Origin: a virus
Length of the DNA stretch: 32,850 bases
IMG/VR virus record: IMGVR_UViG_3300025711_000261
Span: 1-32,850 of that record
Reading direction: 5' to 3' (one strand)
Under the pieces are notes generated by a model, which saw only the letters and a program-made list of their open reading frames with translations, was not told the DNA's origin and did no database searches. Made by a program: the position numbers and the translations under genes. Each line of letters starts with the position of its first letter. Positions within the stretch are counted from its first letter, which is position 1. Shown here piece by piece: positions 1,407-30,042 of the stretch.

Positions 1407-1426
1407 TACTGTACTCATATACAGTA
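1407..1426. promoter_or_regulatory. LexA (SOS) box
   Basis: TACTGTACTCATATACAGTA is a near-ideal LexA site (CTGT-N8-ACAG with TA on both flanks). It ends 27 bp before the ATG at 1454, which suits repression of the promoter driving the two following genes. Induction by DNA damage is therefore expected. Confidence 0.9.
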
Positions 1427-1708: not shown

Positions 1709-2005
1709 ATGCACATGCTAGTGACCCCGATGCGCTGCAAGGGCGTGGCTTTGGACCCACAAGAAAGGAGGCGTTATCCGGCGATCAGGGGTGACGTACT
1801 TGTAGCATCCGCTACAAGCAACGAGCTTGGCCGAAGCTCAAATGTAGCGCGGGTATCGAAGGGGATGCCGTTGGAACCTGATCCACTGCCTCGGTTGCTC
1901 GATGCGAATTTATCCGGAATGGCCCCGAACGGTTTCGTGCTGAGCGGCATTGAGTACGTCGACGGATGCGCTTATGCGCAGTCCTGGTGGTGCCGTCTCG
2001 CTTAA
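1709..2005 (+). CDS. Second gene of the SOS operon, unknown function
   Basis: Protein of 98 residues with a strong ribosome binding site (GGGGGGA about 7 nt before ATG). No domain recognised. The N-terminal third is basic and contains a short RRRYP motif; the C-terminus ends in an aromatic stretch with a WWCR motif. It follows the 80-residue gene closely and is almost certainly co-transcribed under LexA control. A bidirectional terminator lies 18 bp after its stop. Candidate roles are antirepressor partner or another SOS-induced prophage function, but nothing in the protein itself shows which. Confidence 0.65.
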   Translation: MHMLVTPMRCKGVALDPQERRRYPAIRGDVLVASATSNELGRSSNVARVSKGMPLEPDPLPRLLDANLSGMAPNGFVLSGIEYVDGCAYAQSWWCRLA

Positions 2006-2022: not shown

Positions 2023-2050
2023 AAACAGAGGCCGAAGCCTCTGTTTTTTT
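2023..2050. terminator. Bidirectional rho-independent terminator
   Basis: Perfect 8-bp stem ACAGAGGC (2025-2032) / GCCTCTGT (2037-2044) with a CGAA loop, followed by a seven-T run on the plus strand and preceded by an A-rich run (AAAAGAAAA) that gives a U-rich tail on the minus strand. It closes the SOS operon from the left and the 33-codon minus-strand gene from the right. Confidence 0.9.
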
Positions 2051-2056
2051 GTTGCC

Positions 2057-2158
2057 TTACACCTGCTGAAAGATTTTGAATAAGCGGAAAGCCCAGTAGG
2101 CCGTCTGCAAAATCCGAATCACTTCTTCAGGGAGGTAGCGCGCAATGAAATTTTTCAT
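2057..2158 (-). CDS. Candidate 33-residue small protein
   Basis: A short ORF of 34 codons including stop, encoding an amphipathic, aromatic-rich helix (begins MKNFIARYLPEEV, ends RLFKIFQQV). GGAG lies about 9 nt upstream of the ATG, and the ORF ends 7 bp before the bidirectional terminator, so it has the punctuation of a real gene. The start codon lies inside a perfect 8-bp hairpin (2143-2160), and an 8-bp segment of the coding sequence is complementary to the leader (2133-2140 with 2213-2220). Small hydrophobic peptides with sequestered starts are typical of type I toxins, but no antisense RNA is proven. Could also be a leader peptide. Confidence 0.55.
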   Translation of the reverse strand: MKNFIARYLPEEVIRILQTAYWAFRLFKIFQQV

Positions 2159-2220
2159 TGAATATACTCCGCTGCTTAGTAGGCCACACCATTAGTGAGT
2201 GTGGTTCTTCCACGCTACCT
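2133..2220 (-). other. Structured mRNA leader/start region of the 33-codon gene
   Basis: Three nested stems are seen: AGGTAGCG (2220 to 2213) with CGCTACCT (2140 to 2133), closing the domain; CCACAC with GTGTGG (2184-2189 and 2199-2204), extended by a U-G wobble only in minus-strand RNA; and CAATGAAA with TTTCATTG (2143-2150 and 2153-2160), which contains the start codon. Together these would hide the translation start. Folding was done by eye. Confidence 0.5.
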
Positions 2221-2262
2221 GGCAATACCCGGCAGACTCCTATTCAACTAATCAACGAATAC

Positions 2263-2310
2263 CGTTAATTACGGACAATACATTCGAGTATTCGAACACC
2301 GTAACTAACG
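2263..2310 (-). other. 48-bp nested inverted repeat, probable RNA stem
   Basis: Outer arms CGTTAATTACGG (2263-2274) and CCGTAACTAACG (2299-2310) pair at 11 of 12 positions in DNA, and at 12 of 12 in minus-strand RNA, where the odd pair becomes G-U. Inner arms TTCGA/TCGAA (2283-2287, 2292-2296) form a second stem. The wobble bias suggests a minus-strand transcript, the same strand as the 33-codon gene downstream. A protein-binding operator is the alternative. Confidence 0.45.
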
Positions 2311-2490
2311 ACAGTTGAAAAGTGATCACGCTTGACGGAGTCGGCACAGAGCAATAGTCTTCGGACTGTGAGATACAAAGATTTGCTTCAGTAGCGCTTC
2401 TGGGGAGAATCCTAACACAGGATTCAAGCTAGGGAAGTAGCTGAAGATGCTCCATCCGGGCCCGCCATTGTGCGGGCCTACTCATTTCTG

Positions 2491-2676
2491 ATGGCCGGCC
2501 ACCTTAGCGTTTTGCAGATATCTCGCTAAGTACCGGGGTTTCAGGGTGAAGCTTGATCAAATATGCTTAGCGCTTGCTAAACGCTTACTGAAACATCCTG
2601 AAACATTTCTCTCGACGAAACTAAGATGGCCGGCCGAAGCATATAACTCGCCGGCCATAACTTATGATGGCCGGCC
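2491..2676. repeat. ATGGCCGGCC repeats
   Basis: Identical ATGGCCGGCC at 2491-2500, 2626-2635 and 2667-2676, plus an inverted 9-bp copy GCCGGCCAT at 2650-2658. The inverted copy can form a 9-bp stem with either neighbour (loops of 15 or 8 nt). All lie in non-coding DNA just past the last late gene, so a transcription terminator, an mRNA 3'-end stabiliser or a protein-binding array are possible. Confidence 0.55.
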
Positions 2677-2748
2677 GACTTACATGTCGTCTTTAAACGA
2701 CAAGTCAATACCATCAAACTGCTGTCAAACTTAAATCTGGCAACTGGT

Positions 2749-28829: not shown

Positions 28830-29057
28830 ATGATGGGGGCCGTCGTGAGTAAGCTGGATCGTTTCATGCGGGAGAAGGAAGTGTTGGGCATTACTTCTTT
28901 CTCACGAACCACTCTCTGGCGGGAAATCAAACGGGGGAATTTCCCCAAGTCGGTGGTGATTTCGGCGGGCCGGGTTGGCTGGCGAGAATCTGCGATCGAG
29001 GCCTGGCAGAACAATCCCGAAAATTGGCAGATCAGTGCCAAAACCGAAGCCGCGTAA
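28830..29057 (+). CDS. AlpA-family regulator / excisionase-like
   Basis: Protein of 75 residues (72 or fewer if the GTG at 28845, with GGGGG nearby, is used). SFSRTTLWREIKRGNFPKSV is the winged-helix recognition part of the AlpA family, and GRVGWRESAIEAW closes the domain. AlpA-type proteins activate integrase genes or act as excision directionality factors; its place next to int supports either. The stop codon TAA lies in the loop of a perfect hairpin (29046-29065) that is part of a direct repeat. Confidence 0.82.
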   Translation: MMGAVVSKLDRFMREKEVLGITSFSRTTLWREIKRGNFPKSVVISAGRVGWRESAIEAWQNNPENWQISAKTEAA

Positions 29058-29072
29058 GCGGCTTCATCTATT
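29046..29072. repeat. 27-bp direct repeat, copy 1 (end of alpA, hairpin)
   Basis: Matches 30075-30101 at 23 of 27 positions (by eye); the shared core is GTAAGCGGCTTCA. In this copy the hairpin GAAGCCGC-GTAA-GCGGCTTC contains the alpA stop codon. The pair bounds the AbiTii gene. Confidence 0.75.
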
Positions 29073-29130
29073 TGTACCAATCCAACTGCGGCTACTATGT
29101 AGATCTTCTCGGTCTATGCAGGTTTCAGCG

Positions 29131-30042
29131 ATGTCGCTCATTCAAGATATTCAGGCCGCAGCCATCTCCCAGTCTACGGATGTCGCTACGTTGTTGCGGA
29201 TGTGTAAGTTGCTTGCGGCTCGCATTTCCTACCCACAACTCAATGAATGGGCGAACAAAGAACTCAATGGGTATCCCGACGTTAAGTCACTACCAGACTA
29301 TCGAGAGTTGCGTGTCCATTCCTATGGAACATTCCATGGAGGGTTTAGACAAGCCAACCGCCTGCAGATACCCGTGTCGATACTCCCTGAAAATCTACAA
29401 GAGCAGTACAGGCATGCTTACTTGGGGGCAAGTATCAGCGTCTATGCCGAGCTACTGAGAGGAGATACAACTGGCAGAATTGAAGAGCCATGGCCGGTAG
29501 AGCTGGCAGTACATTGGGCGTCTAAGGTCACAAAAGACATGCAGTGCGTAGCCGCGTGGAAAGAGATTCCCATCGGCGCGGTGGTTCGACTTTTGGACTC
29601 CGTCAAAACGCGAATTCTTGATTACGCAATTGATTTAGAACGAGAAGCTCCTAATGCTGGAGAAACACCAATTGGTAGCCAACCTCCTTTGAGTAGCGAA
29701 AAAATGACAAAAATATTTAACAACAACATTTATGGCAGCGTTGGCAACATTTCTAATGAAGGTGAAAACTTCACGCAAAACGCGTCTATTCAGCTTGGAA
29801 ATTGGGACTCGCTGACGAAGCAGTTGACTTCACTTGGTCTGAATCCGACTGATTTTGAAGATATGCAAGGTGAACTTGACGAAGCCATTGCGACGAAGGA
29901 CGAGAAGGAAAAATCAGCAAAAGCCAGTTCTTGGATTAGTCGATTAACAATGAAAGCGGTTGAAGGTGCGACGGGGGTGGGCATAGAGGCTGCCGCTGCT
30001 GGCGTAGCAAAGGCAATCGGAGCCTACGTCGGCCTGTCCTGA
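29131..30042 (+). CDS. AbiTii-domain abortive infection protein
   Basis: Protein of 303 residues, start chosen at the ATG at 29131, where the conserved domain begins (MSLIQDIQAAAIS). The N-terminal AbiTii domain (about 2-190) shows ATLLRMCKLLAARI, EWANKELNGYP and a following LPDYRELRV. It is followed by NNIYGSVGNI (about 195-215) and the usual C-terminal architecture: a WDSLTKQLTSLGL segment and a Gly/Ala-rich hydrophobic end (GATGVGIEAAAAGVAKAIGAYVGL) that may act on membranes. AbiTii proteins are linked to abortive infection against phages; the mechanism is unknown. It is clearly more AT-rich than the surrounding phage genes, so cargo (a moron) is likely. Confidence 0.83.
   Translation: MSLIQDIQAAAISQSTDVATLLRMCKLLAARISYPQLNEWANKELNGYPDVKSLPDYRELRVHSYGTFHGGFRQANRLQIPVSILPENLQEQYRHAYLGASISVYAELLRGDTTGRIEEPWPVELAVHWASKVTKDMQCVAAWKEIPIGAVVRLLDSVKTRILDYAIDLEREAPNAGETPIGSQPPLSSEKMTKIFNNNIYGSVGNISNEGENFTQNASIQLGNWDSLTKQLTSLGLNPTDFEDMQGELDEAIATKDEKEKSAKASSWISRLTMKAVEGATGVGIEAAAAGVAKAIGAYVGLS

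What the first reader, a model, noticed from the sequence alone, without database searches (positions are those of the whole stretch)
2025..2310. 33-codon minus-strand gene whose start is buried in a multi-stem RNA, type I toxin-like
The ORF at 2057-2158 has a ribosome binding site and ends at a strong terminator. Its start codon lies in a perfect 8-bp hairpin (2143-2160), and an 8-bp coding segment pairs with the leader (2133-2140 with 2213-2220). The encoded peptide is an amphipathic, aromatic helix. Sequestered start, long-range pairing and a tiny hydrophobic product are the combination seen in type I toxins and pore-forming peptides. It sits beyond the tail operon, where prophage cargo is common. 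The toxin idea is inference.
Basis: partly seen in the sequence, partly recalled or inferred. Interest (0 to 1): 0.72.

Follow-up and report, generated by a model that had tools for sequence, protein, structure and literature searches.

The report
Antisense-controlled small-protein gene in Pseudomonas prophages
A 33-residue protein in a Pseudomonas prophage belongs to a widespread, unannotated family almost always found with an overlapping antisense RNA gene, the layout of a bacterial 'type I' toxin-antitoxin pair, and it occupies a prophage slot that in relatives often holds anti-phage defence genes.

Summary
The ORF is real. I found 60 distinct homologous loci (27-36 aa), in Pseudomonas prophages, chromosomes and P. 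syringae-group conjugative plasmids. pN/pS is about 0.2, the core is PEELIRALQAAYWSIRL, and no library names it. About 200 nt upstream on the opposite strand lies a conserved ~124-nt RNA gene (promoter, hairpin, terminator). Its 5' end overlaps the predicted 5' end of the toxin-like mRNA by ~36 nt; 56 of 60 homologs have it. A profile of this block, built without the ORF, finds essentially only loci that also carry the ORF, including one whose protein had diverged beyond recognition. The mRNA leader (~240 nt) starts with a hairpin whose arms co-vary between loci (swap test z=-7.3); its 3' arm is the leader's strongest complement to the distant Shine-Dalgarno. The cassette sits in a prophage cargo slot that in relatives holds Septu, restriction, ApeA-, PD-T4-2- or Ppl-like genes. 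Best reading: a new type I-like toxin-antitoxin family. Expression, toxicity and neutralisation are untested.

The parts
2057..2158 (-). 33-codon ORF MKNFIARYLPEEVIRILQTAYWAFRLFKIFQQV (toxin-like protein)
   Evidence: 60 distinct homologs, pN/pS 0.19-0.24
2167..2170 (-). Shine-Dalgarno GGAG
   Evidence: A GGAG/GAGG-like SD precedes the start in nearly all homologs
2143..2160 (-). Hairpin holding the start codon (7 bp, 4-nt loop)
   Evidence: weak conservation, z=-2.9
2023..2046 (-). Terminator of the mRNA, shared with the convergent plus-strand operon
   Evidence: Sequence; a hairpin follows the stop in homologs
2409..2414 (-). Candidate extended -10 box (TGTTAGGAT) of the mRNA promoter; start predicted near 2401
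   Evidence: TGnTAnnnT at a fixed distance in 34 of 56 loci; consensus match, not transcript mapping
2159..2401 (-). Structured 5' leader of the mRNA (about 243 nt)
   Evidence: Leaders fold better than shuffles, mean z=-3.0 in 18 loci; length
2349..2389 (-). Co-varying 5' hairpin of the mRNA leader, target of the antisense RNA
   Evidence: Swap test z=-7.3, p<=0.0002, n=46; fold
2344..2353 (-). Candidate anti-Shine-Dalgarno pairing with 2165-2175
   Evidence: -12.6 kcal/mol; family-wide peak of SD complementarity near this region
2332..2358 (+). Antisense RNA promoter: TTGACG 2332-2337, AATAGT 2353-2358
   Evidence: Present in 56 of 60 homologs
2365..2488 (+). Antisense RNA (about 124 nt); first 37 nt (2365-2401) antisense to the mRNA 5' end
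   Evidence: Conserved block, hairpin swap test z=-4.9, R1 profile hit E=8e-10
2458..2479 (+). Terminator of the antisense RNA
   Evidence: 7 of 9 stem pairs have compensatory changes across homologs

Best explanation
A type I toxin-antitoxin-like cassette of a protein family absent from the searched libraries, carried as prophage cargo and by P. syringae-group plasmids. Shown by sequence and comparison: a 27-36 residue protein under purifying selection; a structured leader; and a divergent ~124-nt antisense RNA gene whose 5' end overlaps the predicted 5' end of the mRNA by ~36 nt. Inferred: the leader folds so that its 5' region can pair with the Shine-Dalgarno and block translation. The antisense RNA binds the first hairpin of the mRNA through its unpaired 5' tail, releases the 3' arm that carries the anti-Shine-Dalgarno and/or exposes the duplex to RNase III, and so silences the gene. 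When transcription of the element stops or changes (loss of the prophage or plasmid, infection by another phage), the short-lived antisense RNA disappears, the protein is made and stops growth. The likely benefit is retention of the element or exclusion of other phages.
For: Protein family and purifying selection. Antisense promoter, RNA and terminator in 56 of 60 loci. Positionally fixed extended -10 for the mRNA. Co-varying mRNA 5' hairpin z=-7.3 and antisense hairpin z=-4.9 against a control of z=-0.3. Anti-SD peak. RNA profile and ORF co-occur: 12 of 13 hits carry the known ORF and the 13th, L043, carries a diverged one; 8 of 8 strong genome hits are ORF genomes. Mobile location: prophage slot shared with defence genes and conjugative plasmids.
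Against: No transcript, toxicity or neutralisation data. Promoters are consensus matches, and the mRNA -10 is absent or weak in about a third of loci. RNAalifold on plain alignments finds no consensus pairs in the leader. The peptide is not strongly hydrophobic and has invariant polar residues, which is unlike generic membrane toxins. Four distant homologs lack the recognisable antisense promoter. The anti-SD effect is modest (p=0.011) and in the window is slightly displaced from the 3' arm.
Confidence: 0.74

Rival explanations
1. The protein is not a self-toxin but a specific small regulatory or exclusion protein of the prophage (for example binding one host or phage target), kept silent by the same antisense RNA and expressed on infection or induction.
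For: Invariant P10, E12, I14, R15, Y21 and L26 and only moderate hydrophobicity suggest a defined protein target; the slot holds anti-phage systems.
Against: Tight antisense control plus a structured leader on prophages and plasmids is the usual layout of a harmful product. Plasmid copies without phage genes argue against a purely phage-specific role.
Confidence: 0.18
2. The locus is a non-coding RNA element or an operator region and the ORF is incidental.
For: The RNA and DNA structure is extensive and the antisense block is strongly conserved.
Against: pN/pS about 0.2, conserved start, SD and stop, and protein conservation across 60 loci.
Confidence: 0.03
3. A chance ORF in a prophage intergenic region.
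For: Short ORFs are common: one search lists 90 of 25 aa or more in 6 kb.
Against: 60 distinct homologs with a conserved architecture; HMM E-values down to 1e-20 in single genomes.
Confidence: 0.01

Closest known systems
AapA/IsoA type I toxin-antitoxin (Helicobacter pylori; PMC6733600)
   Same: Peptide of about 30 aa, cis-overlapping antisense RNA of about 80 nt, SD sequestered by long-distance pairing in the mRNA
   Different: The antisense RNA here overlaps only the first ~36 nt of the mRNA, far from the ORF; the candidate anti-SD is at the 5' end; no relation of the protein was found; different host phylum
TimP/TimR (enterobacteria; PMC11228461)
   Same: A leader element far upstream of the RBS controls translation; mutually exclusive folds; the antitoxin RNA acts on the leader
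   Different: No protein relation was found; the antisense RNA here is encoded opposite the mRNA 5' end
TisB/IstR-1 and ZorO/OrzO (E. coli)
   Same: Peptides of about 29 aa with a divergently encoded sRNA and a long structured leader (from general knowledge)
   Different: In those systems the sRNA pairs without cis overlap (general knowledge); no LexA box was found at this cassette, although one precedes the convergent neighbour operon
Hok/Sok, the type I system reported for P. syringae DC3000 (PMC8790059)
   Same: Antisense control of a leader; plasmid-borne members
   Different: No Pfam match to the Hok family at E<=1; shorter protein with a different motif

Membership tests
Type I toxin-antitoxin system | Small protein, under about 60 aa, encoded by a conserved gene | tested here: met
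   27-36 aa, 60 loci, pN/pS about 0.2
Type I toxin-antitoxin system | Antisense RNA gene complementary to the mRNA | tested here: met
   Sequence level only: conserved promoter, hairpin and terminator, ~36-nt overlap
Type I toxin-antitoxin system | Structured leader that hides the RBS | tested here: inconclusive
   Co-varying 5' hairpin and anti-SD peak support it; no direct probing of RBS access
Type I toxin-antitoxin system | Hydrophobic membrane-active toxin | tested here: inconclusive
   Helix predicted, cationic, but best KD18 about 1.0 and moment not above shuffles
Type I toxin-antitoxin system | Both RNAs transcribed; protein toxic; RNA neutralises it | not testable with these tools
   Needs RNA-seq and expression assays
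Hok/Sok family | Hok protein family match | tested here: not met
   0 Pfam families at E<=1 for the window protein; none in NCBIfam for the family beyond one chance hit
TisB/IstR | LexA-controlled toxin promoter | tested here: not met
   No CTG-N10-CAG at 1901-2600
Any Rfam antisense or sRNA family | Match at the family's gathering score | tested here: not met
   Window and seven homologous loci: none besides the tRNA; only sub-threshold chance matches at 2000-2520

The most novel reading that the evidence does not exclude
The antisense RNA works as an allosteric switch. It pairs only with the loop and 5' arm of the mRNA's first hairpin, freeing the 3' arm, which is an anti-Shine-Dalgarno for a site about 200 nt downstream; and the cassette serves as a prophage anti-phage (abortive infection) module in a defence slot.
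Probability: 0.25. Interest if true: 0.82.

Novelty: new member of a known kind. Interest (0 to 1): 0.7.

Why it matters
A survey of 339 P. syringae genomes found toxin-antitoxin systems almost exclusively of type II, with hok-sok the one type I system included (PMC8790059). This would be a Pseudomonas type I-like family, seen here in about 3% of sampled species genomes (13 of 399), overlooked because its protein is too short to be annotated. It alternates with known defence systems in one prophage slot, which makes a role in phage exclusion directly testable, and the co-varying leader makes the antisense mechanism testable by compensatory mutation.

Tried and rejected
A second pairing site of the antisense RNA at the SD or in the lower leader: asRNA 46-100 gave z=+0.5 and +0.6; asRNA 1-45 versus SD/AUG gave z=-1.8 in 23 loci, but asRNA 1-34 gave z=-0.8 in 46 loci against a narrower SD window. 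A 5'-end to stop-region interaction as in hok or AapA (z=-0.7). A conserved leader ORF at the mRNA 5' end (frames differ between loci on inspection). LexA control of the toxin. RNAalifold on plain sequence alignments found no pairs in the leader, probably because stems fall out of register, so swap tests were used instead. DNA homology to phage records and protein search of isolated phages found nothing credible, so the family is known here from prophages, uncultivated viral contigs and plasmids. Direct repeats between the left 6 kb and right 5 kb of the window, to fix attachment sites, gave only a 14-nt chance match.

Full report
OBSERVATION. The 33-codon ORF at 2158-2057 (-) is present with an ATG start, a GGAG 8 nt upstream and a terminator directly after the stop. 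The minus strand of 2020-2330 folds at -108.4 kcal/mol, z=-5.83 against shuffles. The start-codon palindrome is a 7-bp stem with a 4-nt loop rather than 8 bp. The 8-bp pairing of 2133-2140 with 2213-2220 exists in the predicted fold.

THE PROTEIN IS REAL. The window is an IMG/VR virus record of 32,850 bases: a contractile-tailed phage genome with sheath, tape measure, baseplate and capsid genes, an integrase and a tRNA-Gly near its right end. The peptide matches nothing in Pfam, NCBIfam or PHROGs. It has clear homologs in related prophages, in 40 viral contigs, in 11 GTDB genomes, all Pseudomonas, in 13 of 399 Pseudomonas species genomes and in six conjugative P. syringae-group plasmids, where it is unannotated. 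Removing duplicates leaves 60 loci. The proteins are about 27-36 aa with the core PEELIRALQAAYWSIRL. Synonymous changes far exceed non-synonymous ones (pN/pS 0.19 over all pairs, 0.24 over close pairs). AlphaFold2 predicts a helix at 10-32, with a break from a short N-terminal helix just before P10. The protein is cationic and only moderately hydrophobic, and its hydrophobic moment does not exceed that of shuffled sequences.

THE MISSING PARTNER. Upstream of the ORF on the opposite strand, 56 of 60 loci carry TTGAC[G/T]-N15/16-CATACCCTTTGA-like boxes, followed by a conserved sequence of about 124 nt. Its 5' tail of about 22 nt (ACAAAGAUGUA core) is predicted unpaired in many loci; a hairpin and a GC-rich terminator follow. 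In the terminator stem 7 of 9 pairs show compensatory changes. In the window this is TTGACG 2332-2337, AATAGT 2353-2358, RNA about 2365-2488 (+), terminator 2458-2479. On the gene's strand, at a fixed distance inside this block, lies TGnTAnnnT (34 of 56 loci within 83-87 nt of the end of the antisense -35 box), an extended -10. That places the mRNA 5' end near 2401, so the two RNAs overlap by 37 nt here (median 36, range 34-47). All transcript ends are predictions.

INDEPENDENT CO-OCCURRENCE TEST. A sequence profile of the 70-nt overlap and antisense-promoter block (R1), which contains no part of the ORF, was searched in 80 loci chosen only by their baseplate gene. It hit 13. Twelve carry the ORF. 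The thirteenth, L043, had not been recognised by protein search (E=0.21) but has, in the same place and with an SD, MMILITRNVLDSIIQGLRLAYWVTRLVILIFK. R1 was built from loci that include some of these, so the ORF-positive hits are partly expected; L043 is the blind one. In 399 Pseudomonas genomes the eight strong hits are all genomes with the ORF; a ninth, marginal hit (E=0.0098) was not followed.

RNA ANATOMY. Relatedness of sequences can affect such scores, but the controls stay near zero. Complementarity to the SD region along the leader peaks at the 3' arm of the 5' hairpin (mean about -7.6 against about -5 kcal/mol elsewhere), with a cognate advantage of z=-2.3, p=0.011. In the window UGCUCUGUGC (2353-2344) pairs with GCAgCGGAGUA (2175-2165), -12.6 kcal/mol. 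This suggests that the 3' arm region is an anti-SD, and that antisense pairing to the loop and 5' arm would free it.

CONTEXT. In prophages the cassette lies between the last baseplate gene and a convergent two-gene operon. Where the spacer can be measured it is 748-943 nt with the cassette and 994-2853 nt without it. The alternative occupants include Septu PtuA, type II restriction, PD-T4-2/GmrSD-like, ApeA-like and Ppl-like proteins, and many of unknown function. So this is a cargo slot rich in defence genes. On the plasmids the cassette lies near SOS-peptidase, PBECR2, recombinase and ParA/AAA-ATPase genes.

INTERPRETATION. [quoted passage not shown]). A census of 339 P. syringae genomes found toxin-antitoxin systems almost exclusively of type II, with hok-sok the one type I system it included (PMC8790059). 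The literature searches turned up no description of this family, though most subscription journals and preprints are not held. I put about 0.74 on a type I toxin-antitoxin-like system and 0.18 on an antisense-controlled non-toxic exclusion or regulatory protein. Shown: conserved gene, conserved antisense gene, co-varying RNA elements, cargo slot. Inferred: transcription, toxicity, neutralisation, the anti-SD switch and the biological role.

Noticed in passing
window 1409-1424, upstream of 1454-1696 and 1709-2005 (+): LexA-like box CTGTACTCATATACAG before the convergent two-gene phage operon (phrog_6137, phrog_5560, unknown function). A LexA-like box is found in 60 of 63 related loci, so this operon is probably SOS-induced and runs towards the cassette, sharing its bidirectional terminator.
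   Followed up: partly
window 2023-2748, and the equivalent slot in L004-L081: A cargo slot between the baseplate gene and the convergent operon. In relatives it holds Septu PtuA (L005), type II restriction (L018), PD-T4-2/GmrSD-like (L039), ApeA-like (L051), Ppl-like (L042) and many unknown proteins: a place to look for new defence systems.
   Followed up: partly
window 28975-30042 (+): Protein of 355 aa matching the AbiTii abortive-infection model (E=3e-40).
   Followed up: no
window 2240-2330 and leaders of homologs such as L012 and L131: Repeated CGTTAATTACGG-like near-palindromes between the antisense promoter and the ORF (four copies in L012), and GTTTAGCTAAAC palindromes in L131; possible operator sites as well as RNA stems.
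   Followed up: no
window 2490-2680: Four ATGGCCGGCC-type repeats in direct and inverted orientation beside the antisense RNA terminator; similar GGCCGGCC runs occur near the cassette in L006, L043 and L105.
   Followed up: no
L131:2554 and L131:4400: Two diverged copies of the cassette 1.85 kb apart in one contig, each with its own antisense block.
   Followed up: no
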